A DNA stretch of 64,000 bases from Calothrix sp. PCC 7716 (GTDB taxonomy: Bacteria; Cyanobacteriota; Cyanobacteriia; Cyanobacteriales; Nostocaceae). Positions within the stretch are counted from its first letter, which is position 1, and every line of letters begins with the position of its first letter. The notes beneath the pieces are model-generated. The model was not told where the DNA came from. It was given only the letters and a program-made list of their open reading frames with translations, and did no database searches. Position numbers and translations under genes: made by a program. Shown here piece after piece: positions 28,988-43,743 of the stretch. The DNA is taken from contig NZ_AP025018.1 of NCBI RefSeq assembly GCF_019977735.1, forward strand, positions 372,001 through 436,000, in the 5' to 3' direction.

Positions 28988-31900
28988 ATGATTCAAATTG
29001 GTTCACTAGTACGTTCGCTTGATAATGAACTAGGTACGGGAAAGGTAGTTCAACATAGTAATCAAGACGTAGTAGTTGAGTATTTCTGCTCAGTAGGGCA
29101 ATGTATTGAGGAAACAGTGCCTTTAGATGAGTTGCGTCGGGTAACACTTCAGCGTCAAACTCGGTGCTACGTAAAGTCAGAGAGTGATAGATGGTTGATA
29201 GGAAGAGTTTTTGGTTGGGATGAAAATCACTTAGCCTATCAAATTGATTTGCCTGACAGTAAAACTTTGTTTGCTAGGGAGCGGGATGTATATGTTCGCT
29301 GCAATTTGCCAATCGAAGACCCTATCGATATATTGACGTATAAAGGTCAAGAAACGCCTTACTTCCACCAAAGACGTTTTGCGCTTGTGAAAAACCTAAC
29401 TTCGCAACGCGCGGTTAGTCGAGGAATGACGGGGTTAATTTCTGCGAATATTGAGTTGCTGCGTCACCAGGTTGAAGTTGTGCGTCGGGTACTTGAAGAC
29501 CCTATTCAACGGTATTTGTTAGCTGATGAGGTCGGACTAGGAAAAACTGTGGAAGCAGGCGCCATTTTGCGTCAATATTTACTTGATGACCCAGAGAGAC
29601 GCGCGATAGTATTGGCGCCGCAGTATTTACTCGAACAGTGGCGTACTGAGTTGAAGAATAAGTTTTATCTGTCGCATTTTCCCGATAGGGTAGTATTAGC
29701 AGCGGTTGAGGATGTTCACAAGGTTAATGCAAAAGCTGATATTGGGCTAATAATTATAGATGAAGCTCACCACGTAGCAGCAATGGCAAGGTCAACGGAT
29801 GCAGTAAAGCGCAGCAGCTTTGCAGCTTTCAAAAAGCTTGCTCACCAGTCAGAGCGGTTGTTACTACTTTCTGCGACTCCTGTCGTCAACAACGAGGAAG
29901 ATTTTTTGTCAATGTTGCATTTGCTCGACCCGACAAATTATAAATTAGATGATTTGGAAGGTTTCCGTGACCGAGTGGCAAAGCGTCAAGATATTGGTCG
30001 AGTATTATTGTCGTTTCAAGAGGGTGCAAATTCTTTCGTTCTCAAAAATCAAGCTACACAACTTTGCAGTTTATTTCCCGAAGATAAATACTTATCGGAT
30101 TTGGCAGAAAAGCTACAAAATTCTTTACAAGAAAAAACTGGTAACGAAAATAAAATAGTTAGAGCGATTCGTACTCATATTAGCGATACTTATAGACTTT
30201 ACCGTCGAATGCTGCGTAATCGTCGCGCTTCTGTGGAGGATGTAATTTTTGACAGGAATGTGGCGCCGAAAGCTGAGTATGATTTAGATGAGCGTGTTTA
30301 CGACATTCATGAGTTAATGGAAGAATGGCGTGGACTGGCGCCTGATAACTCAAACTATCACCGCATCTTTTTACTATTGTTCCGTGCCAGTGGTACTTGG
30401 TTAGGAATTTTACAGCAAGTTCTCGAAGCGCGTTTAAAGGGTAGTTTTCCTCAAGTGTTGACGAAAGAGTTTGACACAGACAGTTTGAATATTTTGACTG
30501 AAACTCCCAAATTCGACAAGGAAGAGGAAATTTTACAAGGTTTGCTAAAAATTCTTGAGAAACCTTCAGAAGATGGCGACCGTTTGGTGTTACTGAGAAT
30601 AGTAATACTTTACAAGCTCTCAGAAAACTTTAAACTCCAATCGTTCCGTAGTAATTTACCAAAGTTACTCGAACAAGTGCAATTACGGTTAAGAAGACCA
30701 ATACCTGGGGATAAACTACCAAAAATAGTGATATTTACCAGTTATGTACAAGTTTGCGCTCAAATCATCAAGTTTTTGCGAGATAGCTTTGGAGAATCAT
30801 GTATTGCAAGTCATTTACTCGGAGAACCACGAGCGCAAGTAGAAAAAAGTCTTGATAGATTTAAAAATGACCCTAACTGCTTTATTCTCGTTTGCGACTA
30901 TTCGGGTGAAGAAGGTCGTAATTTGCAATATGCTGACTCAATGATACATTTTGACTTGCCTTGGTCGCCAAATCGTTTAGAGCAACGAATTGGTAGAATT
31001 GACCGTATTGGGCGCCAGTTGAATGTAGAATTTACAGTATTTGCAGGCGCCGAGATAGATGACAGTCCGCACGATGCATGGTATCAATTGTTGAAAGATG
31101 GATTTAATATCTTTGAGCAGTCGATAGCAAGCTTCCAGTTTTATGTTGATGGCAAACTGCCGCAGCTAGAAGCAACTTTGTTTAAATCTGGGGCAAATGG
31201 GTTATTAGAAAGTGTAGAGCAAGTTAAACAAGAAATAGGCTTAGAGCTAGTTAAAATAGACGAGCAAAACACCTTAGATGAAATTAACGCTCTTGATGAA
31301 ATAGCTAGCGAGTACTTTGAAAGCTTAGATAACTTTGATGCTCAACACCAAGAAATCGAGCGAGTTACCGAAGACTGGTTGTGTAACGCTTTGAGATTAA
31401 AACAGCTAAATGACCCAAACGTCTCAGCAGCACAGCGTTATGAACCAACACAGAAAACCTTAATACCCATCGACGATTTGAGAACTTACTTCGTGGGGTT
31501 AACAAACGATACAGGTACATATAACCGAAGAGTCGCCAATCAAAAACCCAACGTCAACCTGTATCGAATTGGTGAAGGTTTAATCGACTCATTATCATCT
31601 TATATACATTGGGATGACCGAGGTCAAGCATTTGCCATGTGGCGAGTTGACGACACTTGGGAAAAGAGTGAAGGTGCTGAATGGTTTGGTTTTAGATTTG
31701 ACTACATTATCGAAACCGACTTAAGTAGTTATAAAATAGACCCAATCAAGTACAAAACACTACAACGTCGTGCAGATAGCTTATTTCCACCAATCATCCA
31801 AAGTATCTTTATCGACGCACGCAACGAGCCAATGAGCATTGTTGAAGACGAAGCACTGTTAGAAATATTACAACGCCAGTACAAAGGCAAAGGCAAACCG

Positions 31901-32374
31901 CCAATTAAACCGCCAATTAAAGCTGCCGATAAAGCTGCCGCCAAAGCCGCTAGTAAAACACCTCCACCTGGCGCCAACAACCAAGATTACAACCTAGCAA
32001 AAAGTCGTTTGCCAATACTAGATAACTTTATACACCCAGACGATTGGCAAGATTTTTGTCGCGACGCGCGTAACGCATCTGTAGAGTTACTAATTAGCCA
32101 AGATAACTTTATAGAGATGTGCGAAAAAACAGCAGAAAACGCAGAACAAAAACTCGGAAGACGACTCGAACAACTACGTTTACGTCTCAACCGCATCAAA
32201 CAACAAGAAAAAATGATTGACAAATCACTTACCCAAGAAGTAGTAGAAGAAGCCAAACTCAACCAAGCAATAATAGAAGGTATCCGTCACCCAAATATTC
32301 GCCTTGACTCCGTAGGCTTCATTATCGTTTCCGGGCGCCATCCCATTCAAGGAGCAGAAGTAGAAGACTGGTAA
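28988..32374 (+). CDS. DpdE-like SNF2/RapA-type helicase
   Basis: A 1128-residue ATPase. The N-terminal 140 residues (GSLVRSL, VEYFCS, QTRCYVKSESDRW, ETPYFHQRRF) match the leader domain I associate with DpdE. The SNF2 core follows: Walker A ADEVGLGKTVEAG (about 179-190), DEAH box IIIDEAHH (about 256), LLLSATPV, and C-lobe motifs LVCDYSGEEGRNLQYAD and RLEQRIGRIDRIGRQ. A low-complexity Pro/Lys/Ala linker is near 965-1000, with a coiled coil in the last 100 residues. DpdE occurs with 7-deazaguanine DNA modification islands, but no dpdA or other dpd gene is here. GGCGCC density is normal, so the gene is a long-term resident. Confidence 0.8.
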   Translation: MIQIGSLVRSLDNELGTGKVVQHSNQDVVVEYFCSVGQCIEETVPLDELRRVTLQRQTRCYVKSESDRWLIGRVFGWDENHLAYQIDLPDSKTLFARERDVYVRCNLPIEDPIDILTYKGQETPYFHQRRFALVKNLTSQRAVSRGMTGLISANIELLRHQVEVVRRVLEDPIQRYLLADEVGLGKTVEAGAILRQYLLDDPERRAIVLAPQYLLEQWRTELKNKFYLSHFPDRVVLAAVEDVHKVNAKADIGLIIIDEAHHVAAMARSTDAVKRSSFAAFKKLAHQSERLLLLSATPVVNNEEDFLSMLHLLDPTNYKLDDLEGFRDRVAKRQDIGRVLLSFQEGANSFVLKNQATQLCSLFPEDKYLSDLAEKLQNSLQEKTGNENKIVRAIRTHISDTYRLYRRMLRNRRASVEDVIFDRNVAPKAEYDLDERVYDIHELMEEWRGLAPDNSNYHRIFLLLFRASGTWLGILQQVLEARLKGSFPQVLTKEFDTDSLNILTETPKFDKEEEILQGLLKILEKPSEDGDRLVLLRIVILYKLSENFKLQSFRSNLPKLLEQVQLRLRRPIPGDKLPKIVIFTSYVQVCAQIIKFLRDSFGESCIASHLLGEPRAQVEKSLDRFKNDPNCFILVCDYSGEEGRNLQYADSMIHFDLPWSPNRLEQRIGRIDRIGRQLNVEFTVFAGAEIDDSPHDAWYQLLKDGFNIFEQSIASFQFYVDGKLPQLEATLFKSGANGLLESVEQVKQEIGLELVKIDEQNTLDEINALDEIASEYFESLDNFDAQHQEIERVTEDWLCNALRLKQLNDPNVSAAQRYEPTQKTLIPIDDLRTYFVGLTNDTGTYNRRVANQKPNVNLYRIGEGLIDSLSSYIHWDDRGQAFAMWRVDDTWEKSEGAEWFGFRFDYIIETDLSSYKIDPIKYKTLQRRADSLFPPIIQSIFIDARNEPMSIVEDEALLEILQRQYKGKGKPPIKPPIKAADKAAAKAASKTPPPGANNQDYNLAKSRLPILDNFIHPDDWQDFCRDARNASVELLISQDNFIEMCEKTAENAEQKLGRRLEQLRLRLNRIKQQEKMIDKSLTQEVVEEAKLNQAIIEGIRHPNIRLDSVGFIIVSGRHPIQGAEVEDW

Positions 32375-33023: not shown

Positions 33024-33851
33024 ATGGCTCGATTAGAAATGCATTTCAACGGAACCTTTGCTTTAAAAAGGGAAGAAGTCAGTAGAATTCTCAAAGCAGC
33101 TAGTGAAGAAAAAGCATTAGATGATACGCTTAAGAATTTAATGGACAGAACTAATTTAGGCAATGCCAAAGTAGGAAAAATAAAAGGTTGGACAGAGCGT
33201 TCTGGTTTAGTAAAAGGGAAACATTTAACTCCAGAAGGAGAAATTGTTTGGCAATTAGACCCTCATCTCAAACTGTACATAACATGTTTATTAATGCATT
33301 TTTATTTATCCTTTGGAAGTAAAGGATTACAGAAACCACCAAATGAACCTTCTGACTGGGGTGGTTGGTCTTATTTTGTTTATAGTTTTCTACCACAAAA
33401 CAAAGTATTTACAGCTACAGATTTACTCAATAGTGGGGGAGCGATTTTTGAGGAAAAAAGCGATGTAATTTCTCAGAGATTTTCTTTTATATTGCGCGCG
33501 TATACTGAACCTTATGCTCTAGCTTCTTGTGGTTTTCTGACTAAGCAAGGTGATGAATATTATGCTTATAACACTAACTTAGAGAATTATTATTTAATTG
33601 GGTATTTTCTAGCAAAACTGTGGGAACGTGATTTCGGTGCCACAACTTCAGTTTTAACGGATGATATATTAAATCAGAAAATGGGACTGGTGCCTGTTTT
33701 AGGTGTAGACACTTCAACTCTCCAAAGCTATTTAAATCAGATGGAGATATTAGGAATAATAGAGCAAAGACGTGCGGTTTCTCCTGCACAAATAATTCGT
33801 CGCTGGGATGACCCAATGACCTTATTGGAGAAAGCATATGATAATCAATGA
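33024..33851 (+). CDS. DUF4007-like protein
   Basis: A 275-residue protein whose layout fits DUF4007: FNGTFALKREEVSRIL at the start, NAKVGKIKGWTERSGLVKGKHLTPEGEIV (winged-helix-like wing, about 50-78), DPHLKLYITCLLMHFYLSF, and a C-terminal winged-helix STLQSYLNQMEILGIIEQRR. DUF4007 genes are usually found beside PAPS-reductase-like (DndC-type) genes in defence loci, where they are thought to bind DNA. Here no such gene exists. It is the first gene of the operon and overlaps the next by 14 bases. The assignment rests on pattern memory, so it is moderate. Confidence 0.6.
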   Translation: MARLEMHFNGTFALKREEVSRILKAASEEKALDDTLKNLMDRTNLGNAKVGKIKGWTERSGLVKGKHLTPEGEIVWQLDPHLKLYITCLLMHFYLSFGSKGLQKPPNEPSDWGGWSYFVYSFLPQNKVFTATDLLNSGGAIFEEKSDVISQRFSFILRAYTEPYALASCGFLTKQGDEYYAYNTNLENYYLIGYFLAKLWERDFGATTSVLTDDILNQKMGLVPVLGVDTSTLQSYLNQMEILGIIEQRRAVSPAQIIRRWDDPMTLLEKAYDNQ

Positions 33852-34269
33852 TTTAAGGTTACGTGAAGCAAGACCTAGTGACCGTCCTCATTTGCTGTTA
33901 TGGGATACTCCAAATGATTTAGAACTCAAACAACTTGCTTTATACGAGAATGCTGAATGCATTAGTTATCGGGATAATCTTATAAGTCGTACACCAGCAA
34001 CAAGACGCTTCTTGAAATTGCATTTGCATCTGGCTCGTGAACTAGAGGAAATCACAAAAATGTGCATGAACAGAAGTAAACCTGTTGTGTTACTCAAAGA
34101 CTTTGATTGCCTCATAACGTATTTACGTACAGAACCAGAGGCAAAATTGACATTTTTTTGGAAAAACCTTGAGACCACTAGACATTTGGAAAGTGTTCTT
34201 TGGATAATACTACCTCGTAAATTGGCGCCTACCGATTGGGATGAAAGACGCATTAAATATATTGACTAG
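33838..34269 (+). CDS. Small defence-operon protein, possibly BrxF-like without a P-loop
   Basis: A 143-residue protein, translationally coupled to the DUF4007-like gene (ATG inside its last codons). A strand-turn near the start, HLLLWDTPND, lies where a P-loop NTPase would have GxxGxGK[ST] but has no lysine-serine. Later KPVVLLKDFDCLITYL looks like a Walker-B-like strand, and LESVLWIILP a sensor strand. This is the shape of small BREX proteins such as BrxF, with the nucleotide site lost. No enzyme function is evident; a structural or adaptor role for the large ATPase downstream is my inference. Confidence 0.4.
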   Translation: MIINDLRLREARPSDRPHLLLWDTPNDLELKQLALYENAECISYRDNLISRTPATRRFLKLHLHLARELEEITKMCMNRSKPVVLLKDFDCLITYLRTEPEAKLTFFWKNLETTRHLESVLWIILPRKLAPTDWDERRIKYID

Positions 34270-34322
34270 TAATTCATACATAATAACTTATAAATATTTA
34301 TATAAACAGGTAAAGTAATCAA

Positions 34323-37300
34323 ATGTATTTAAGTCAACTTGTTACAATTAATGAAAAAGCGATAGTCGCAAATGCTGTTAATTTTAGTTTAATGGATGAC
34401 GCTGAAAAAAATTTGCGATTGTGCGAAGGTTTTGTCTTTAATTATGACTCAAATAAAATCAAAGCTTCTACAGTTGGCGTATTGGATGCTTTAAGACGTG
34501 GTTTTCATAGTCCCAATGAACCAAACATCCATTTAATGGTACAGGATTATGGAAAGGGAAAATCTCATTTTGCCTTAGCAGTTGCAAACTTTTTTCAGAA
34601 ACCCTACGATAGCCTCGAAGTTCAAGGGGTTTTAAAACAAGTTGAATATGCAACATCTAGTAATAATCAAATGTTAGAAGCTTTAAAGCACTATAAACAA
34701 CAAGGCAGAAATTTAGTAATTTGTCTGAGTGGTGATAGAAGCGATAAAGACTTAAAAAGACAGTTTATACAAGCTGTGAAAAAAACTTTAAATAACGAGG
34801 GAATTACAGATGTAATAGCTCAAAGAATTTGCAATGAACCTCTTCAATTCCTGGAAGATTTAACTGTACATCAGCGTGAAATAGCAGAAGCATATTTAGA
34901 AGAAATTGGTAATCCAGATGATATAGACGAAATTATTGATAGTTTACGAGAGAATGACTATAGAGTGGTTAGTTTAGTCAAACAAATTTGTCGTAAACTT
35001 AATAATGTTACACCTGATTTTGATGCTGACATTGATGTAGAAATTATTCTAACAGATTTAATAACTAATTTATGCATTGGTGACAATAGGCGTTTTAACG
35101 GAATATTGATTATTTTTGATGAGCTTTATAACTATTTGCAGAACTGGTCAACTGACCCTACTGCTGCTGGAGGTACAACTTTACAAAATATAACTAATAT
35201 TTGCGAAAGATATAATGGTAAGATAAGTTTATTGAGTTTAACTCAACGAAGACCAGGACGAGTTAATCCATCTAAAAATGTTGAAGATTATAATCGACTA
35301 GTTTCCAGAGTTGAGTTACAAAAAAGTACATATGAACCTGCTACAAGTTTAGAATCTGTATTAAATAATTTGCTGTGCCAGGAAACTCAAACGTCAGCAT
35401 GGCAAATATTTGAAAGGAAATGGCAAGACACATTAAACGATATTAATACTAAGATTTTCCAGAACCGAACTAATAAATACTATCAGAATCGGAACTGGCA
35501 AGCAGATAAGTTTAAAAGAGAAATTACATTAGGTTGTTTTCCATTACATCCTTTAACATCGTACTTGTTATGCAATTTAGATTTTACTCAAGGTCGTGGA
35601 GCAATTCAGTTTGTTCAAGAAACAGTTCATAATTTTATTCAACAACAATCTGTTGAAGTTAATGGTCATATTAATTTTTTATATCCTGTTGAATTAGTTG
35701 ATGCACTTGAGAGCAATTTTTCTAAATATGGTGAAAATTCAGAGTATTCAACGGCTTTTTCTGATTATACTTACTCAATTAATAAACTCAAAGCTTCCGC
35801 CGATGCAGAACTAGAGGAATTATTAATATTAAAAGCTTTATTGCTTTTTTATACAAGTAATGGAAAGCTCATCAAAGCAGATAAGGAAAAGCATGAAGAA
35901 CTTTTAAGCCTTTTAACTGGATTATCAGTAAAGAAAACCAAAGAGACTTTAGATAAGTTAGATAAAACCAGAGGAATTATATATCTAAATCCAGCAGGTG
36001 ATACTTATCGCTTCTACTCTAACGGATTTGGAATTGATGAAATTAAAAGACAAATTAAAGAAAAAACAATTAATAAATCGCCTTCACTTGAAAAAGTTGT
36101 AAGTTTTTGTCAAACAGAGATTAATAAGCTTGTTGGTGGCGAAACTACGACACCATCTCAATTTATAGCAAAAAATGGTCTGCGTAGTGAAGATTGGAAA
36201 TACCAAAACAAAGTCTACACTATTACAAGATTTAAACAAGCTTTGCAAAACCCTAGAAGTCTTGATGGTGTTGAAGCATCTGGTATAGTGGCTTATGTTA
36301 TTGTAGAAACTCAGGAACAGTTATCGGGATTTCGTAATGAAGTAAACCAGCTATTAGAACGTTCTCCAATCAAAGATCAAATTGTTGTAGCAATTATTTC
36401 TCAACCAATCGATAAGTTAGCTATAAAATTGATGGAGTACGGAGTTGTAGAAAACATGCGTCTTCAAGAATATAACGCTGCTTTACCTCAAATTAAGCAA
36501 GTATATGATAAAGAAATCAATGATATTGCAACAGAGTTATTTAAATCTTGTATTTATCACTGCCACATTTTAGATAAAATACCAACTGCTCAACGTAATC
36601 ATATTTCCAATGTTGTTAGTGCAGTGCTTGAGGACAGATATCCTTTTGTTCCAACTGTAAATAATAATGATAAAATGTACTTGGGTCATGCAACTGGTTC
36701 TAAAGTTATAGGTTATGTTTCAAAATGCTTATTAGAGGATGATTCTTTACCTCAAGTTTTTCCAGATAAAAGCTTTAAGACTGTAGTAGACCAAGTTTTT
36801 ACAAGCTCTTGGGGATTGTTTAAACTAGTAAATCAAAGGTATGTTATTAATGTTCCAACTCATCGCAACGTCAAAGCAGCTTGGGATGAAATTTCTAATT
36901 TAATGGCTCTAGGTCAAGACACAGAAAAAATTGTTAAGATTAGCACAATTTGGGAAACTCTTTCTAACCCTCCTTTTGGTTATAATCAATATACTTTCAC
37001 AATTTTGCTTGCTGGTTGGCTGGCTTACCACCGTTCAGAATTATTAATAAATGGTGCGTTTGGTATTCCTCAGAAAAAGTCAGAGCAAGTAACAATACGC
37101 AAAGAAGCAGTAAAAAACTGGGCATCTGTAAATGTTTTTGAGAAACCGAAAGATTTTGTCAATATTTGGTTAAAAAATGGGCAAAATTTTATAATTCGCC
37201 GCAAACCAACTCCTTACCCTCAAGTACCAAATTCTGTGAGCTACGACTTAGCGCAGCAGTTTATTCAAGATATTAATGATTACCTTGCAACCGCCCAAGA

Positions 37301-39728
37301 TGCAGATAAGATTCAGCAAATAACAAGCGAACAGCGAATGCTTACTACAGGCGCCGCACAAATTGATACTTTAATAGAACCTATCGCACAAGCAGAGAAT
37401 CTTCTTCAAAAACATAATCTATCTACAGATATAGATATTCAGTCTTTGCTTAATATTTCCGAGGCCTTGCAAAAACCGTTATTGACAGTTTCTGTAGGAA
37501 GGTTGTCTATACATCCTACACCGCAGCAGGAGGAAAGGCGTCGAAAAGCTATAAATGATATCATCGAAAAAATTGGACAAATTATAGACCTAGAGTGCGC
37601 GCGCGTTAATTCATTAAAAACTCAAGCTGAGTGTGAAACTTACAAAGTTCATATAAACAAGCTTCAATCTAAAGTTTCTCAAACAACTTACTTGCCATCT
37701 CGATTTGTCGAACAGTTACAAAGTGCAACACTTGCTAGTGATAGTAGATTATCAGAAATTGTAGAACAAAATAAAGTTGATAGTTGTATTAGTCAGATAC
37801 AAAAGCTTCATAGCTCTTTAAACGCTTTGGCAAGACAAGCTGAGTATCGTGAGATACAAATACAGATAGAGCAAGAAGTTACAGCAGTGCCTATTGTTAA
37901 ACAACAAGAAATTTATCAATATATTATCAGAGATATTGAAGCAAAACAAGAAGCTCTCACTCAAAAAATATCTGATTGGGAAAATCAATTTACTCAAAAC
38001 ATATCTTCCACATTTGCACTTCAGATAAGTACTAGCATCAATCAAGAAATTCAACGTTTTACAGACGAAGATAGCAAAGTTAGACTCAATAAACTTCTGA
38101 AGCGCTTAAATGATATTATTTTGCAGCGTCAAACAGAGGAAGAAGAATCTGATGTTATTAACGATGTTCTCGAAACTGCCGCGCGTAAATTAGCAGAAAT
38201 CGAAAACTATAAGAAATTATCAGATATTTTTAAAGCATACAAGGAACTCGACCAGTTAAAATTACCACTTCAAATTAAAGCTACAGCGTTAAAAAATAAA
38301 CCATCAGAATTAGATGGAATAAAATCACAAAGTTATACATCCGTTTTAGCAAAAATTAATCAAATTTTTGACAACTGTGACCATCCAATAAGTAAAATAT
38401 TTGACTACCAGCAATTGCAAGATTTCCTACGGCAAATCGAAGGATTTATTAGCACTTGTGATGATTTTAGAAGATTATCAGATGATTTACGCGAAGCAAA
38501 AGAGAATTTGCAAGGACAGTACGATGAGTTTCAAAAGTATGAACGAGATAGGAAAATTCTTGAAGATATTCGTCAAAAAAATCTTAAAAATGCCAATACA
38601 ATTCATTTATGTGAAGAAGCAATTGTGGAAATAGAGACTTTAAGATGCAATTTTAATTACCCTGAAAATTTTGCTTTGGAAGTTGACAAACTAGTTAAAG
38701 ATTTTACCAACAAAGTAAACAGCTATAAGCAAAAATTAGAAAGTTTGCGAGAAAAATTATCTACAGCTAAAACATATCAAGAAGTTGGAAATGTTAGAAA
38801 TACTCATGCACAGTTAAAACTAATATTTAATGATTCGAGTGAGTATAATACTTACCAAGAACTACAAGTAGCTATTGACTCAGTAGGAGCAGACGTAGAA
38901 CGTATCAACCATTGGGAAGGTCTTTACAAGCAAAGTAACTCAATTGCTTCTTGTAATACTACTTTAGAAACAATTACTCAAGATGAAGCTAATTTACATG
39001 ACGTTGAACGTTTTAAACCTCAACTTCAGCAATTAAAACAGAATCTTACAAATAAGAGACAAGGTTACATTGACCAACTTAATGAAATTCAGACCAAATT
39101 AAGTAACATAACAAATCAAAAAGACGCTCAAAAGCTTCAAGATGAATTGGCTAGTAAATCATCTTATTATATAGATTCTCCAGAACAACAAAGTTATCAA
39201 GAGCTTCGGTCAGAACTTAGTACTCTCAATACCCTACTACAAATTACTGCTACTCAAAAAATAGATACAAACGATAACTGTACACAAGAAATAGCACGCT
39301 TACAAGACTGGCGCCAAAGTAAAGGACAAATTACAGCAATTGTACAAACTCGCTTTGATACAATACTTAATGATTTGGAAGAAACACGGTGCCAGTTAGA
39401 AAATAAGCAAATAGAAGCAGCAAACGCATGGTTTAATGAGTTGATTATTCAAAAGTTAAACCTTGAAAATTCTAGCGAAACCACAAATATTAATAACGCT
39501 ACTAATCTGCTGAAAAAAATTCAGACAGAAAGAAGTAAATATGAAAAACTTTTACAAGAAAAGCAAAAAGAGGATTTAGAGCAAATTATTATATCCTGTA
39601 AAGGAATTGAGAATAAAAATACAGAAAGTAAGATTATTGTTCTATTCCAGAAGCTACCACGCTCTAAACGCGAAGCTTTACTGAGAAAGTTAGCTGAAAT
39701 CAACACTACTGCAACGGAGGAGTTTTAA
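34323..39728 (+). CDS. Giant BrxC/PglY-like P-loop ATPase with long coiled-coil tail
   Basis: A 1801-residue protein. The ATPase part is N-terminal: Walker A VQDYGKGKSHFALAVANFF (about 73-91) and Walker B NGILIIFDELYNYL (about 258-271), separated by an insert, with LLSLTQRRPGR as a sensor-like strand. Residues about 300-950 follow the BrxC/PglY layout (RWYSNGF-like and FTILLAGWLAYHRSELL helices). The last 800 residues are heptad-rich coiled coil with many KLQ/ELQ repeats. BrxC/PglY is the scaffold ATPase of BREX systems; 1801 residues is well above the usual roughly 1200. It has only two GGCGCC sites in 5.4 kb and one rare GATC (36375), a different base signature from neighbours. The stop overlaps the next ATG (TAATG). 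Confidence 0.78.
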   Translation: MYLSQLVTINEKAIVANAVNFSLMDDAEKNLRLCEGFVFNYDSNKIKASTVGVLDALRRGFHSPNEPNIHLMVQDYGKGKSHFALAVANFFQKPYDSLEVQGVLKQVEYATSSNNQMLEALKHYKQQGRNLVICLSGDRSDKDLKRQFIQAVKKTLNNEGITDVIAQRICNEPLQFLEDLTVHQREIAEAYLEEIGNPDDIDEIIDSLRENDYRVVSLVKQICRKLNNVTPDFDADIDVEIILTDLITNLCIGDNRRFNGILIIFDELYNYLQNWSTDPTAAGGTTLQNITNICERYNGKISLLSLTQRRPGRVNPSKNVEDYNRLVSRVELQKSTYEPATSLESVLNNLLCQETQTSAWQIFERKWQDTLNDINTKIFQNRTNKYYQNRNWQADKFKREITLGCFPLHPLTSYLLCNLDFTQGRGAIQFVQETVHNFIQQQSVEVNGHINFLYPVELVDALESNFSKYGENSEYSTAFSDYTYSINKLKASADAELEELLILKALLLFYTSNGKLIKADKEKHEELLSLLTGLSVKKTKETLDKLDKTRGIIYLNPAGDTYRFYSNGFGIDEIKRQIKEKTINKSPSLEKVVSFCQTEINKLVGGETTTPSQFIAKNGLRSEDWKYQNKVYTITRFKQALQNPRSLDGVEASGIVAYVIVETQEQLSGFRNEVNQLLERSPIKDQIVVAIISQPIDKLAIKLMEYGVVENMRLQEYNAALPQIKQVYDKEINDIATELFKSCIYHCHILDKIPTAQRNHISNVVSAVLEDRYPFVPTVNNNDKMYLGHATGSKVIGYVSKCLLEDDSLPQVFPDKSFKTVVDQVFTSSWGLFKLVNQRYVINVPTHRNVKAAWDEISNLMALGQDTEKIVKISTIWETLSNPPFGYNQYTFTILLAGWLAYHRSELLINGAFGIPQKKSEQVTIRKEAVKNWASVNVFEKPKDFVNIWLKNGQNFIIRRKPTPYPQVPNSVSYDLAQQFIQDINDYLATAQDADKIQQITSEQRMLTTGAAQIDTLIEPIAQAENLLQKHNLSTDIDIQSLLNISEALQKPLLTVSVGRLSIHPTPQQEERRRKAINDIIEKIGQIIDLECARVNSLKTQAECETYKVHINKLQSKVSQTTYLPSRFVEQLQSATLASDSRLSEIVEQNKVDSCISQIQKLHSSLNALARQAEYREIQIQIEQEVTAVPIVKQQEIYQYIIRDIEAKQEALTQKISDWENQFTQNISSTFALQISTSINQEIQRFTDEDSKVRLNKLLKRLNDIILQRQTEEEESDVINDVLETAARKLAEIENYKKLSDIFKAYKELDQLKLPLQIKATALKNKPSELDGIKSQSYTSVLAKINQIFDNCDHPISKIFDYQQLQDFLRQIEGFISTCDDFRRLSDDLREAKENLQGQYDEFQKYERDRKILEDIRQKNLKNANTIHLCEEAIVEIETLRCNFNYPENFALEVDKLVKDFTNKVNSYKQKLESLREKLSTAKTYQEVGNVRNTHAQLKLIFNDSSEYNTYQELQVAIDSVGADVERINHWEGLYKQSNSIASCNTTLETITQDEANLHDVERFKPQLQQLKQNLTNKRQGYIDQLNEIQTKLSNITNQKDAQKLQDELASKSSYYIDSPEQQSYQELRSELSTLNTLLQITATQKIDTNDNCTQEIARLQDWRQSKGQITAIVQTRFDTILNDLEETRCQLENKQIEAANAWFNELIIQKLNLENSSETTNINNATNLLKKIQTERSKYEKLLQEKQKEDLEQIIISCKGIENKNTESKIIVLFQKLPRSKREALLRKLAEINTTATEEF

Positions 39729-40897
39729 TGGCTGAACTCTATCCTATTGGTCAACCTGAAAACGAATCCGAGCGTAAAGCTTTTGAGTATTTACGCGCGC
39801 ATCTGCCAAACTCATATAAACTATTTACGAATTTAGAAATTAGCCAAGGTGTGGAAATCTATGAAATAGACTTAATCATCCTGGCGCCACATTGTGTGTA
39901 TGTTGTAGATATCAAAAACTGGCATGGTAATATCGATATATATGATCCTTATTGGCACCCTGATAATTACCAGCCTTATATTTCGCCGTTAAAAAAGTTA
40001 AGGAAACATGCAAAGGTTCTTAGTACTGCAATTTGTGATACTAACCGTGCCAGAACGCAAGAGTTGCAAAAAGTTCATATTCAAGCATCTGTTTTAATGG
40101 CAAATGTGAATGTTAAAATAACTGACTATGGTGATAAAGACGGCGCCCATGTAACATTTTTAGATAAACGCTGTATTGAATATTTTAAAGATAATTCATA
40201 TATTCCTGAACACCGTTCTATAGATATTAAAATTTACACATTTTTCGTTGAACAAGCAATAAGGGGTAAATCAAAACCAAAGTCGGCGCCACTACGCTAT
40301 CGTGACTGGCAAGTTGAAGAAAAGCTTAGTTCGGATGAACTGCGACAATATATAGAATATCGTGTGAAGAAAACCACTATAGGTATGAGTGGTTTAACTG
40401 CGCGTTTGCGGGTTTATAAAGTTGACCCCTTATTAGAACCAGCTGAACGCGAGGAACAGTACAGGTTAATTAGTACAGCAATGCTCGCACTTGGTCAGTT
40501 GCCATCACATCAAAATATATTAAGCATACAAGAATGTTTTGAAAGTTCAGAGCATAACAGCTTAGTGATGGTGACAGAAGATGTGAAGGGACAGGTTTTA
40601 AGTCAACATATTAAAAAGCAAAGTCTTAGTTGGAAAAGAAAAATATCTATTATAAAAAGTGTTTTACGTGGATTACAACATATTCACGAGCATGAGATTA
40701 TTCACCGCAATATTACCCCTGATACCATTTTAGTTACATCTACAGGACAAGCGCGTTTAATTGGCTTTGATTACGCGCGTATTTCTAACCGCACCAGTAC
40801 TATCGCTAACCATATTAGAGAGAAGCTCGAAAAGTATGCTGCATACCAAGTAGAGAAAATAAAATCGCTCCTTACCTCGATTTTCAACAGAAAGTAA
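39728..40897 (+). CDS. NERD-domain protein with truncated pseudokinase domain (PglW-like)
   Basis: A 389-residue protein. Residues about 10-120 are a NERD nuclease-related domain: YEIDLIILAPHCVYVVDIKNWHG carries the D...(D/E)xK core. Residues about 215-375 are a protein-kinase fold resembling the PglW kinase of type 2 BREX. The catalytic loop reads IIHRNITPDTILV (HRD Asp changed to Asn) and the DFG position reads LIGFDYARI (Asp changed to Gly), so phosphotransfer is unlikely. No glycine-rich loop is evident. The frame stops shortly after the activation-segment-like KYAAYQVEK, losing the kinase C-lobe. Its 3' end overlaps an open frame that leads into PglZ. Confidence 0.75.
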   Translation: MAELYPIGQPENESERKAFEYLRAHLPNSYKLFTNLEISQGVEIYEIDLIILAPHCVYVVDIKNWHGNIDIYDPYWHPDNYQPYISPLKKLRKHAKVLSTAICDTNRARTQELQKVHIQASVLMANVNVKITDYGDKDGAHVTFLDKRCIEYFKDNSYIPEHRSIDIKIYTFFVEQAIRGKSKPKSAPLRYRDWQVEEKLSSDELRQYIEYRVKKTTIGMSGLTARLRVYKVDPLLEPAEREEQYRLISTAMLALGQLPSHQNILSIQECFESSEHNSLVMVTEDVKGQVLSQHIKKQSLSWKRKISIIKSVLRGLQHIHEHEIIHRNITPDTILVTSTGQARLIGFDYARISNRTSTIANHIREKLEKYAAYQVEKIKSLLTSIFNRK

Positions 40898-41181
40898 CAT
40901 TACGCGATAAACAGTCTCCACCAAAACCCGAACCACTGTCAATAGATGCAAGTCCACAACAAGCATTCACTTGGGTAACAGAAAATTACCTTCCTTTTCG
41001 TCGTTGGGAAATTGTTGTTGACCAAAAGCCATATGACCAGAGAGACAGCGACCGTCTAGCGGATAGTTTTGTTGAGTGGATACTACAGCACTATCCAGAA
41101 CTAAAATTTGATGCAGTTGAGCATTCACTGCTCAATTATAGTGTTGCATATGATGTTCAGAATCTTTGTAAGATAAATCCT

Positions 41182-42294
41182 GTGCTTTGGGTTGTTGTTG
41201 ATGGACTAGGTTGGTTAGACCATATAGAACTTTTGTCTTACCTGACAAAAAATAATCAACTTGCTATAGAACGCTATATTGAACCCCGCTTCAGCATCTT
41301 ACCAACAAAAACTGAGTATGCTAAATGGAGTTTGTATACTCAACTTTTACCTTCTCATTCTTCATGGGTCAATGATGCGGGTAAAGGTTTTGTACAAATG
41401 GGTAAGGGAAAACGCTATACAGATAGTCGTAGAGCAGAACTACTTAAAGATTTAAAATCTCGCAAACATCAACTATATTGTTGGGATACACAACAATTTG
41501 ACGAACTGTATCATCATGAACGTGACTGGGAACACCTTTATAATAATAGGCGCCCTTATATTCTAGAAGGGATTGCAAGAGAAATATTATCTTTTGTCAA
41601 CTCATATGAGCAACCCGACAATCTTCAAATTGTCATAGCTAGTGACCACGGTCAAATGTTAGGTATTTCAGAGCAGATACTTCCTAGTGGCAATAAATTA
41701 GACACAAAAGGCAGAATGGCTATAGGCAAAAGTGATGATACTCGTCTTGTAGTTTTAGAGCGTGAACGTTATGGTCTGCCTCATGATATCAGTGTTGTTC
41801 GAGGCGCCGCTAGTCTTGGCGCATTTAGCTACACAACTGATAAAAAAATCATTGGTTCTCATGGTGGGTTATTTCCAGAAGAAGTTGTAGTTGGAGTATC
41901 GGTACTGCGAACATCTATCCAGCGTTTGCCTGTACTAATAACATGTAGTGGAAAAGGAAAAGCTAATAAGCAGGGAGAACTAACTATTACCATTGATAAC
42001 GCAAACTCTGTACCTCTTACAAATCTTTGGTTACGCATTAATGAAATAAACATTTTAAAATCAGGGCAACCTTTAGAAAGAAATGTTTTAGAAAATGACA
42101 AATTAACTTTTAATATCAATATTCATGTACCATCATTACCTCTAGATTCTCAAGAAGACATTTTGCCTTTAACTGGTGAATTAACGTTTCAATTTGCAAA
42201 CGCTGAAACGAAAAGTATAATTCTATCTAGTGACTCTAGCATGGTTATCGAACAAATATTTGATAGTGGTTTTAGCTTAGAGGATTTTTTATAA
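41182..42294 (+). CDS. pglZ: PglZ-domain protein (BREX core), true start upstream or lost
   Basis: From the GTG at 41182 the product is 370 residues and begins inside the core strand VLWVVVDGLGWLDHIELL, the metal-site strand of the alkaline-phosphatase-like PglZ fold. Further motifs are SILPTKTEYAKWS, NLQIVIASDHGQM and SHGGLFPEEVVVGV. The same frame is open without a stop back to 40819, and its translation (AFTWVTENYLPFRRWEIVV, LADSFVEWILQHYP, LLNYSVAYDVQNL) looks like a genuine PglZ N-terminal region, yet contains no ATG, GTG or TTG. The real protein is thus probably about 490 residues, reached by frameshift from the kinase gene, or the gene is damaged. BrxL follows with no gap. Confidence 0.82.
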   Translation: MLWVVVDGLGWLDHIELLSYLTKNNQLAIERYIEPRFSILPTKTEYAKWSLYTQLLPSHSSWVNDAGKGFVQMGKGKRYTDSRRAELLKDLKSRKHQLYCWDTQQFDELYHHERDWEHLYNNRRPYILEGIAREILSFVNSYEQPDNLQIVIASDHGQMLGISEQILPSGNKLDTKGRMAIGKSDDTRLVVLERERYGLPHDISVVRGAASLGAFSYTTDKKIIGSHGGLFPEEVVVGVSVLRTSIQRLPVLITCSGKGKANKQGELTITIDNANSVPLTNLWLRINEINILKSGQPLERNVLENDKLTFNINIHVPSLPLDSQEDILPLTGELTFQFANAETKSIILSSDSSMVIEQIFDSGFSLEDFL

Positions 42295-43743
42295 ATGAGT
42301 TATACTGATATTTTTACTTACAATAACGATTTAATCACTGAAGTTTTTGGTAGTCTTTGTATTGATAAAAATCGATTACCATCAAGTGGGTTAACTTCTG
42401 CTGGTGTACCTAGTTTTGTTGCAGAGTGGTTACTCGATAAAATTGTACCTGGAACTGGAAAACTGGTGCCAGCAGAGTTAGAAAAAATTAACACATTTAT
42501 AAGTAAAGCTTTTCCTCGTAAAGATGACTATAAAGTTATTATGTTTGAGCTATCTCAAGGAGAAGCAAAGAAAATAATTGCTTTAATGCAAGTAAGTATA
42601 AAAATAGACCAACAAGGGAAGTTAATCCCTGAACCTTCAGCACAAATCAAAGTACTTAATTTAGAAGACTGTAGAATTTCTCCTACAATTGTAGAACGTC
42701 ATCAAATGCTCTTACGTCAGGGAGTTTGGGGAAAAATTACCTTGGCGATGTTGAAGGGTGGAACTGTAGAGGTAATGGACTTTGACCCATTTCAATGTTC
42801 TGAAGTTAACTTGAAACTTTACGCCGAGTGTAGAGAAAAATTTAGTATACAGCAATGGCGAGATTTACTATTTTGTTCAATGGGCTTTAACCCCGAACAT
42901 CCAGATTATACTATAGAAGCAAAAACTTGGGTATTAGCTAGATTATTACCTTTAGTAGAGCCTAACTACCATGTAATGGAATTAGCTCCTAAAGGTACAG
43001 GTAAAAGCTTTGTTTTTGAAAGCATTAGTAGCAAAGTATCTCTCATTAGTGGGGGTAAAGTCACACCTGCACAGTTATTTATCAATGGTAGAACTAGAGA
43101 AGTAGGGTTATTAGGGCGCCATGATGTAGTAGTACTCGATGAAGTTCAAAGTTTAACTTTTGACTCACCCGATGAAATGATTGGCCCCTTGAAAAATTAT
43201 CTAGCTAGTGGTCGGTATAACCGCTCCGGTTTTGCAGAAGTTTCCAGCGACTGTTCGCTTGTGATGCTGGCAAATATTGAATTAGACGAACAGTTACGAC
43301 CCCGCAACGAAGATAATTTAATTAGCGAACTACCAAAATTTTTTAGTGAAACAGCCTTTTTAGACCGTTTCTGTGGCATTATTCCAGGATGGGAGGTTCC
43401 AAAATTTAAACAAGAAATGGCAGCATCTCAAATTGGCTTAAAAATGGACTTTTTTGGCGAAGCATTACTTTCTTTACGTAAAGACAATAGTTTTATATCT
43501 TACGCAAAAGACCATACCCAGTTTGAGAATAACGTAACAGTGCGTGACCAGAATGCTATTCTAAAATCAGCATCAGGATTTTTAAAAATTCTCTATCCCC
43601 ACTTACAACTAACATCAAGTGATTTTTATCGTAATTGCTTAGAACCAGCCATAAAATTACGTCAATCAATTCGTAACTCGCAATACTACCTAGATGATGA
43701 ATTTAGACAACTAGGTAAAGAAATTTACGCTGATGCTAAGTAG
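42295..43743 (+). CDS. brxL: Short BrxL-like AAA protein
   Basis: A 482-residue protein whose ATG directly follows the pglZ stop. The N-terminal region (residues about 1-200) has the BrxL layout; the AAA core has Walker A LAPKGTGKSFVFE (about 228-240) and Walker B HDVVVLDEVQSL (about 275-287), then the SGRYNRSGF and FFSETAFLDRFCGIIPGWEVPKF segments typical of BrxL. The C-terminal Lon-type serine protease domain of long BrxL (about 680 residues) is missing, which matches the shorter BrxL variant. BrxL multimers bind DNA and block phage in type 1 and type 4 BREX. It ends the operon. Confidence 0.85.
   Translation: MSYTDIFTYNNDLITEVFGSLCIDKNRLPSSGLTSAGVPSFVAEWLLDKIVPGTGKLVPAELEKINTFISKAFPRKDDYKVIMFELSQGEAKKIIALMQVSIKIDQQGKLIPEPSAQIKVLNLEDCRISPTIVERHQMLLRQGVWGKITLAMLKGGTVEVMDFDPFQCSEVNLKLYAECREKFSIQQWRDLLFCSMGFNPEHPDYTIEAKTWVLARLLPLVEPNYHVMELAPKGTGKSFVFESISSKVSLISGGKVTPAQLFINGRTREVGLLGRHDVVVLDEVQSLTFDSPDEMIGPLKNYLASGRYNRSGFAEVSSDCSLVMLANIELDEQLRPRNEDNLISELPKFFSETAFLDRFCGIIPGWEVPKFKQEMAASQIGLKMDFFGEALLSLRKDNSFISYAKDHTQFENNVTVRDQNAILKSASGFLKILYPHLQLTSSDFYRNCLEPAIKLRQSIRNSQYYLDDEFRQLGKEIYADAK

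What the first reader, a model, noticed from the sequence alone, without database searches (positions are those of the whole stretch)
33024..43743. BREX-like operon without any DNA-modifying enzyme
Six tightly packed genes on one strand: DUF4007-like, 143-residue small protein, 1801-residue BrxC/PglY-like ATPase, NERD-pseudokinase, PglZ and short BrxL. PglZ plus BrxC-type ATPase is the BREX hallmark, and BrxL with PglZ resembles type 4, while a NERD-kinase resembles type 2 PglW. No methyltransferase (PglX), PAPS reductase (BrxP) or adenylyltransferase lies in or beside the set. Either self-marking is done by a gene elsewhere, or the system works without modification. I do not know a named subtype with this gene list.
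Basis: partly seen in the sequence, partly recalled or inferred. Interest (0 to 1): 0.85.

Follow-up and report, generated by a model that had tools for sequence, protein, structure and literature searches.

The report
Broken orphan of sulfur-linked BREX-like defence
The six genes are really five, one of them cut in two by a deletion, and they look like the left-over attack half of an antiviral system that in related bacteria sits beside genes that mark DNA with sulfur, which makes it a candidate for the restriction partner that sulfur marking in cyanobacteria was said to lack.

Summary
The ORFs are there, but two of the six are pieces of one gene. In the relatives L001, G002 and G008 the "NERD-pseudokinase" and "PglZ" are one NERD-pseudokinase-kinase-PglZ gene (1487-1567 aa). 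The window lacks 1,996 bp of it against its Calothrix relative (junction 40850/40851), and the frame is broken, so this copy is probably dead.

The intact module is: a second SspB-like protein (DUF4007), a small P-loop-like protein without Walker A, an SspC/BrxC-family AAA+ ATPase, PglZ (with or without NERD-kinases) and BrxL. Of 60 loci read, 28 have phosphorothioation (PT) ssp genes nearby, 15 of them all four (sspB-sspC-sspD-[module]-sspA). Ten lie 3-667 bp from dndD. Fourteen with adequate flanks, the window among them, have neither. Thermomicrobium roseum has the nine-gene ssp form.

The window is an orphaned, broken restriction arm of a PT-linked, BREX type-4-like system; its genome keeps dndC/D/E 7.6 Mb away. 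The family looks like a new variant: a duplicated SspB/SspC pair on the attack side, a MAD6-type kinase fused to PglZ, and linkage to two PT writers. Function is inferred, not tested.

The parts
33024..33851 (+). DUF4007-like protein, 275 aa: a second, divergent SspB relative (DUF4007b)
   Evidence: Pfam DUF4007 21.2 bits, below the cut-off of 27. Profile-profile match to SspB 99.2%, E 5e-20. Model pLDDT 86; the only Foldseek PDB hits under 1e-3 are three SspB chains, TM 0.69-0.70. dN/dS 0.13-0.16.
33838..34269 (+). Small protein, 143 aa, predicted P-loop-like fold without Walker A; candidate counterpart of BrxB/BrxF (inference)
   Evidence: No PADLOC or NCBIfam hit; one weak Pfam hit far below its cut-off. 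Alignment of 16 sequences; the protein at the same gene position in divergent G264 has a P-loop. Model pLDDT 86.7; Foldseek hits weak, best E 0.0035, TM 0.45.
34323..39728 (+). 1801-aa AAA+ ATPase of the SspC/BrxC superfamily (ATPase2) with a long C-terminal extension
   Evidence: Invariant G77, G79-K80-S81 and D266-E267 in 10 sequences, two of them partial. hhalign to SspC 99.8%, E 8e-28, 683 columns. Homologues in G022 and G264 hit PADLOC SspC at 8e-19 and 1.5e-56; the T. roseum homologue hits none.
39728..40897 (+). 5' remnant of the NERD-pseudokinase-kinase-PglZ gene: NERD and part of the pseudokinase, then a short out-of-frame tail
   Evidence: NF047741 (MAD6) 373 bits, below its cut-off of 460; NERD 65 bits. 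87% identical to the start of the L001 fusion.
40850..40851 (+). Deletion junction: 1,996 bp missing against L001, 1,897 bp against G002; frame broken
40851..42294 (+). 3' remnant of the same gene: C-terminal part of PglZ with its metal-site-type motifs; no usual start codon before GTG 41182
   Evidence: PADLOC PDLC02549, positions 275-648 of 726, 67.7 bits. 86% identical to the end of the L001 fusion. Start-codon scan.
42295..43743 (+). BrxL, 482 aa, short form
   Evidence: TIGR02688 443 bits, cut-off 329. PADLOC PDLC02507 433 bits. dN/dS 0.08-0.10.

Best explanation
The window holds the orphaned and broken attack half of a phosphorothioate (PT)-linked, BREX type-4-like antiviral system. In the intact form a PT writer (SspABCD, or Dnd in ten genomes of the window's family) puts sulfur marks on host DNA (known for these enzymes). 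The five-gene module would be reader and effector. A second SspB-like DNA-binding protein and a second SspC/BrxC-like AAA+ ATPase survey DNA; the small P-loop-like protein acts as adaptor or sensor; unmarked DNA licenses the PglZ nuclease and the BrxL DNA motor; in one architecture a fused NERD-pseudokinase-kinase adds a trigger or a second nuclease. In the lineage of the window the ssp genes are no longer beside the module. In this genome a deletion of about 2 kb has also removed the active-looking kinase and the PglZ N-terminus and broken the frame. Shown here: gene content, homology, linkage, deletion, purifying selection on the sequence. Inferred: the biochemical steps, PT dependence, an ssp-linked ancestor, a recent break, and loss of function of this copy.
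For: Deletion inside one gene. Of 60 loci tabulated, 28 have at least one ssp gene in the stretch read, 10 have dndD (8 of these also dndC), 22 have neither, and 8 of those 22 end within 1.5 kb of the module. T. roseum, of another phylum, has the nine-gene order with ssp genes. The module-to-dndD spacing is 3-667 bp in 10 of 10, always at the downstream (brxL) end and convergent; in G744 and G757 no BrxL ORF was found. DUF4007b and ATPase2 are relatives of SspB and SspC. On the tree the 10 Dnd-linked loci lie in one 15-row clade whose sister is two ssp-linked loci, and the window clade (G000, G001, G002) lies in a fork with ssp-linked G008, G799 and G789. T. roseum and G264, the outermost rows, are ssp-linked. 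The genome keeps dndC, dndD, dndE and a TIGR04096 gene. dN/dS is 0.08-0.25 for the module genes and both remnants.
Against: No experiment. Fourteen loci with adequate flanks have no ssp or dnd gene nearby, and 8 of them have a full-length PglZ, so nearby PT genes are not strictly needed. DndC also occurs without the module (G004 confirmed; long PF01507 hits in G003, G005, G006), so its presence is weak support. The Dnd-linked cases are one clade, hence perhaps one event. PglZ damage is not significantly commoner in solitary loci (p 0.17 by the scripted rule; 0.051 with three motif variants counted as intact). Seven of the 28 ssp-linked loci rest on the desulfurase SspA alone. The deletion rests on one assembly.
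Confidence: 0.75

Rival explanations
1. Solitary forms with all five genes whole (G001, G002, G100, G201, G290, G678, G682) are complete BREX-like systems that need no DNA modification and recognise invaders by some other cue through the duplicated SspB/SspC-like pair; the window copy would be a broken member of these.
For: 14 solitary loci with adequate flanks, 8 with full-length PglZ, 7 of these with a whole BrxL. Purifying selection between G001, G002 and the window, which have no ssp or dnd gene beside the module.
Against: 9 of 9 tested genomes with a solitary-type module have a long DndC match, 632-667 bits (G000, G001, G002, G100, G290, G318, G201, G123, G087; G123 has a short flank and G087 also an ssp-linked copy). 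Six of the 14 solitary genomes were not tested for DndC. The nine loci with readable flanks from other orders are ssp-linked, two by SspA alone, and 0 of 11 such genomes has a full DndC.
Confidence: 0.12
2. The window copy still works as a split system: a NERD-pseudokinase protein plus a short PglZ core protein starting at GTG 41182.
For: The fragment keeps the PglZ metal-site-type motifs. Both remnants show dN/dS of 0.12-0.19 against relatives, as a recent break would too. A shortened PglZ persists in another lineage. A weak AAGA lies 8 bp before the GTG.
Against: The frame is broken and no ATG, GTG or TTG precedes 41182. The active-looking kinase and the PglZ N-terminus are gone. The short form elsewhere keeps the ends and drops the core, which is the reverse.
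Confidence: 0.05
3. The deletion is an assembly error or sits in only part of the culture, and the strain has an intact orphan module.
For: A clean junction with at most about one base of homology; only one assembly seen.
Against: The genome is 12.37 Mb in 10 contigs, listed as 100% complete. The flanking sequence aligns without other breaks of frame.
Confidence: 0.07

Closest known systems
BREX type 4 (BrxP-BrxC-PglZ-BrxL, PT-based)
   Same: PglZ and BrxL. The best PADLOC PglZ and BrxL models for the window (PDLC02549, PDLC02507) match the T. roseum proteins from first to last residue. PT genes nearby in 38 of 60 loci. Read: PMC12839542, abstract, sections 14, 21, 34, 36 and passages.
   Different: Section 34 lists one ATPase (BrxC = SspC) and DUF4007, often fused to the PAPS reductase. 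Here a second DUF4007, a separate small protein and a second ATPase lie on the effector side. The window has no PAPS reductase nearby and a broken PglZ.
SspABCD with SspE or SspFGH
   Same: The module lies beside sspD where other Ssp loci carry other effector genes: FtsK-type genes after sspD in L188 and L189, DndB/helicase/PLD-type genes between sspD and sspA in L186.
   Different: Different effector genes. [quoted passage not shown]
Dnd systems (DndFGH or PbeABCD as partner)
   Same: In 10 genomes of the window's family the module is convergent with dndD at 3-667 bp.
   Different: None of the module proteins is called DndF, G, H or PbeA by PADLOC. Cyanobacteria were reported to lack dndFGH (PMC8569181, passages).
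BREX type 2 PglW / MADS MAD6
   Same: NERD-pseudokinase-kinase order. The Calothrix fusion passes the MAD6 model (691 against 460 bits).
   Different: PglW model far below cut-off (201 against 990). Here the kinases are fused to PglZ. No other MADS gene was looked for.
BREX-related capture (BRC) systems
   Same: PglZ, BrxC-like ATPase, STAND-type protein and DUF4007 together (PMC12839542 section 36).
   Different: BRC always has HerA/FtsK; I did not search for it here and saw none among the annotated or HMM-scanned neighbours. BrxL is part of the present module.

Membership tests
BREX type 4 | PglZ | tested here: not met
   Window: C-terminal part only, gene broken. Whole in many relatives.
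BREX type 4 | BrxL | tested here: met
   TIGR02688 443 bits against 329.
BREX type 4 | BrxC/SspC ATPase | tested here: inconclusive
   Related to SspC by profiles, but no PADLOC BrxC hit for the window protein. Ssp-linked G008 has a separate true SspC besides it.
BREX type 4 | PAPS reductase (BrxP/SspD) in the locus | tested here: not met
   None found in the window. In the genome PF01507 gives two hits, one in a 246-aa frame (CysH-like by length) and DndC; the same search finds SspD in G008 and others.
Ssp system | sspB-sspC-sspD with the module | tested here: not met
   Not found in the window. SspC and SspD not found in the genome (without control; for SspD with controls); SspB and SspA were not sought genome-wide. 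28 of 60 loci have ssp genes in whole or part.
Dnd system with this module as partner | dndD/dndC adjacent | tested here: not met
   The Dnd locus of the genome is 7.6 Mb from the operon along contig C1. Adjacent in 10 of 60 loci.
BREX type 2 | PglW and PglX | tested here: not met
   NF033442 93 bits for the window ORF, 201 for the intact fusion, cut-off 990. PglX itself was not sought by HMM; only short motifs were checked.
MADS | MAD6 kinase with the other mad genes | tested here: inconclusive
   The intact relative passes the MAD6 model; the window remnant scores 373 against 460. Other mad genes not looked for.
PT-dependent restriction | Restriction depends on PT marks | not testable with these tools
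   Needs phage assays with and without the PT writer.

The most novel reading that the evidence does not exclude
One effector module has been paired with two unrelated PT writers: with SspABCD in cyanobacteria and Thermomicrobium, and with DndCD in the window's family. It works with both because its own SspB/SspC-like pair reads the mark. It would be the restriction partner that the ancient cyanobacterial Dnd system was said to lack, and solitary copies would run on Dnd marks made elsewhere in the genome.
Probability: 0.45. Interest if true: 0.78.

Novelty: new variant of a known kind. Interest (0 to 1): 0.6.

Why it matters
A 2021 study placed the origin of Dnd phosphorothioation in ancient cyanobacteria, probably Nostocales, reported that cyanobacteria lack the restriction arm dndFGH, and proposed a first role as an antioxidant system (PMC8569181, passages). 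A five-gene BREX-like module lying 3-667 bp from dndD in ten genomes of six genera of the window's family, and among ssp genes elsewhere, is a concrete candidate for that arm and can be tested by gene removal. It also suggests an architecture in which the SspB/SspC pair was duplicated, one copy for marking and one for attack, and an attack arm that can change its marking partner. The window copy matters mainly as an example of how such an arm decays once separated.

Tried and rejected
Rejected: (a) six separate genes; ORFs 4 and 5 are remnants of one. (b) A true PglW or type-2 BREX; model score far below cut-off. (c) Membership of the DpdE-like helicase 28988-32374 in the module; a close homologue was near it only in the three same-genus loci G000, G001 and G002 (G048 has a weak partial hit). 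(d) Remnants of ssp genes in the window; none by tblastn, with G226 as positive control. (e) A claim that solitary copies lose PglZ more often: 8 broken of 37 linked against 6 of 14 solitary, p 0.17, or p 0.051 with three motif variants (G799, G804, T. roseum) counted as intact; not significant and not corrected for kinship. (f) Presence of dndC as proof of pairing: relatives without the module have it too.

Limits. The 60 loci come from ATPase searches and a BrxL search; G037, G044 and G048 have no ATPase ORF in the stretch read. Not read: 8 of the 38 hits (G015, G715, G721, G722, G736, G746, G778, G791), 9 of the 22, weak or fragmentary (G099, G118, G346, G395, G406, G416, G423, G549, G645), and 5 of the 15, with BrxL hits of 24-40% identity (G004, G006, G018, G019, G027). 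G123's desulfurase (43% identical to SspA, about 5 kb upstream of the module) was set by hand to "not ssp". Solitary G032 has a TIGR04096 gene nearby. In one search G022 (Dnd-linked) was still labelled solitary. In one search G264 and T. roseum were left out for long branches and rows with under 1,200 residues were dropped; PglZ columns of eight broken or partial copies were left empty. Both trees are quick ones without bootstrap, and the program warned of long branches that meet. For the PglZ count G063, G345, G599, G775, G777, G030, G712, G123 and G693 were dropped as cut or short-flanked. The DndC model also rings in 5 of 14 control genomes, so weak hits mean little. PF01507 missed a truncated SspD in G087. 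The family name Nostocaceae for the window's GTDB family is recalled from its Calothrix relative; I take L001 and G001 C7 for the same contig by their equal length.

Literature: searches. In them and in the papers opened I saw no description of a second DUF4007/ATPase pair in PT-linked BREX or of this module beside Dnd. Goldfarb 2015 and the 2024 type-4 study are not held, and supplements were not read. PMC12839542 was read in its abstract, four sections and passages. PMC6459918, PMC10853773, PMC8092258, PMC8569181, PMC11931770, PMC12707154 and PMC9716671 were seen in passages. PMC12205998 was seen in a search listing. MADS is known to me from recall and model names; searches gave no paper on it that I opened.


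Full report
Observation. The six ORFs exist at the given coordinates with gaps of -14, 53, -1, 284 and 0 bp. BrxL is certain (443 bits), and so are the NERD and kinase domains. PglZ scores below all curated cut-offs but matches a PADLOC PglZ model. The 1801-aa protein matches nothing at E<=1 in PADLOC and Pfam, and only one chance-level NCBIfam model.

Two ORFs are one gene. The relative L001 (Calothrix MAG; taken to be G001, same genus) has the same gene order, but with a single 1518-aa gene between ATPase and BrxL. G002 (1487 aa) and G008 (1567 aa) agree. Aligned to L001, the window lacks 1,996 bp in one block at 40850/40851, and 1,897 bp against G002. Both shift the frame, and the rest is collinear. 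The lost part holds the second kinase (HQDIKPSN motif in L001) and the N-terminal part of PglZ. The PglZ frame has no ATG, GTG or TTG from the junction to 41182, where a weak AAGA stands 8 bp ahead.

What the parts are. The intact fusion passes NCBIfam's MAD6 model (691 against 460 bits) but not PglW (201 against 990). DUF4007b is an SspB relative: profile match 99.2%, E 5e-20, and the only PDB matches of its model under 1e-3 are three SspB chains (E 4e-9 to 7e-9, TM about 0.70). The big ATPase is an SspC/BrxC relative: 99.8%, E 8e-28, with invariant Walker A and B residues in 10 sequences. The 143-aa protein is predicted as a P-loop-like fold without Walker A. Its structural matches are weak (best E 0.0035), so its reading as a BrxB/BrxF counterpart is inference from position, size and published descriptions (PMC12839542 section 21).

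Neighbourhoods. ATPase searches gave matches, own genome included, in 15 of 291 genomes of the order, 22 of 388 of the class (nine weak or fragmentary) and 38 of 217 of the family. I read the neighbourhoods of 60 loci, found by the ATPase or by BrxL. In 28 at least one ssp gene lies in the stretch read: 15 have all four, 21 have sspB, sspC or sspD, and 7 have only sspA. The full order is sspB-sspC-sspD-DUF4007b-small-ATPase2-PglZ-BrxL-sspA, at times with other genes between. In G008 SspB, SspC, SspD and SspA were confirmed by PADLOC; sspD and DUF4007b are about 80 bp apart, and brxL and sspA overlap. Thermomicrobium roseum carries the same nine genes on its plasmid; its small protein is placed by position only. 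In 10 loci, all of the window's family and in six genera, the module is convergent with dndD at 3-667 bp; dndC was seen in 8 of the 10, and BrxL in 8 of the 10 (not in G744 and G757). In G022 the neighbours were confirmed by PADLOC: DndC, and an ABC ATPase that scores higher as PbeC (954 bits) than as DndD (771). In 22 loci neither was seen; 8 of these end within 1.5 kb of the module, leaving 14, the window among them. Other Ssp loci carry other genes beside sspD.

History. On a tree of 54 loci the Dnd-linked cases lie in one 15-row clade whose sister is two ssp-linked loci (support 99-100); the Dnd label needs 3 changes there. The window clade (G000, G001, G002) shares a fork with ssp-linked G008, G799 and G789 (98). 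The label "none" needs 9 changes. In one search, rooted on T. roseum with G264 next, both ssp-linked and long-branched, "solitary" needed 7 changes, with G022 still counted as solitary. The simplest reading is an ssp-linked ancestor, several separations, and one capture by Dnd. These are quick trees without bootstrap and with long branches.

The genome of the window. No SspC or SspD relative was found (without control; for SspD, with controls). It has a Dnd locus at C1:8.04 Mb: DndC 651 bits, an ABC ATPase at 925 bits as PbeC and 761 as DndD, DndE 59 bits and a weak DndB-like protein, 67 bits, with a TIGR04096 gene close by. A long DndC match, 632-667 bits, was found in 9 of 9 tested genomes with a solitary-type module (G000, G001, G002, G100, G290, G318, G201, G123, G087), G123 having a short flank and G087 also an ssp-linked copy; six of the 14 solitary genomes were not tested. 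It was found in 0 of 11 tested genomes from other orders, where the nine modules with readable flanks are ssp-linked, two by SspA alone. This fits marking in trans, but G004, without the module, has dndC-dndD too, and G003, G005 and G006 have long PF01507 hits, so the support is weak and confounded with taxonomy.

Selection. Between the window, G001 and G002 dN/dS is 0.08-0.25 for DUF4007b, small protein, ATPase2, BrxL and the two remnants. I infer that the module was useful until recently and that the break is recent.

Mechanism (inferred). PT marks written by Ssp or Dnd label self DNA, the SspB/SspC-like pair of the module surveys DNA, and PglZ and BrxL act on unmarked DNA, with the kinases as an optional layer. 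Nuclease activity of PglZ is reported for type 1 (PMC12205998, search listing) and was not tested here. For the window copy I expect no PglZ-based function.

Literature. Type-4 BREX is described with DUF4007, one BrxC/SspC, PAPS reductase, PglZ, BrxL and often a cysteine desulfurase (PMC12839542 section 34). Dnd genes are described as enriched in Nostocales, with dndFGH absent from cyanobacteria (PMC8569181, passages). In searches I saw no account of this module beside Dnd or of the duplicated SspB/SspC pair; key papers were not held.

Verdict. The window locus itself is a casualty, a broken orphan. The family it belongs to looks like a new variant of PT-linked BREX and a good candidate for the missing restriction arm of cyanobacterial PT marking.

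Noticed in passing
G649 (L238-L239), G651 (L242-L243), G770 (L240-L241), G030 (L032): PglZ is shortened to 201-219 aa: N- and C-terminal ends kept, catalytic core missing, frame open. dN/dS among the first three is 0.41-0.51 against 0.17-0.34 for the other module genes. A core-less PglZ occurs in three genera.
   Followed up: partly
window 28988-32374 (+): DpdE-family SNF2 helicase (NF041062 1075 bits against 500) directly upstream in the window, L001 and G002; other Dpd genes were not searched for.
   Followed up: partly
L126 7295-8257 (own genome, near dndC): 320-aa HNH protein near the PT-DNA restriction endonuclease model NF045808 (128.7 bits, cut-off 180), close to the host's own dndC; a PT-cutting enzyme beside a PT writer would be odd.
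   Followed up: no
L186 (T. variabilis plasmid A), L187 (Synechocystis pSYSM), L190 (Leptolyngbya BL0902): Ssp-type loci of named strains have other or partial contents before sspA: DndB/helicase/PLD-type genes (L186), a short SspC and an HNH gene with no PAPS reductase annotated (L187), or a run of Uma2-type genes with no PAPS reductase annotated (L190).
   Followed up: no
L093 9093-18155 (G264): A divergent version of the module (BrxL 38%, PglZ 25%, ATPase 21%, DUF4007 24% identical) whose small protein has a P-loop, near sspD and sspA.
   Followed up: partly
L138 1016-3130; G000:C1:8047779-8049206: The TIGR04096 putative methyltransferase lies near many dnd- and some ssp-linked modules and was found over its cut-off in 16 of 16 genomes tested and 0 of 14 controls; its role is unknown.
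   Followed up: partly
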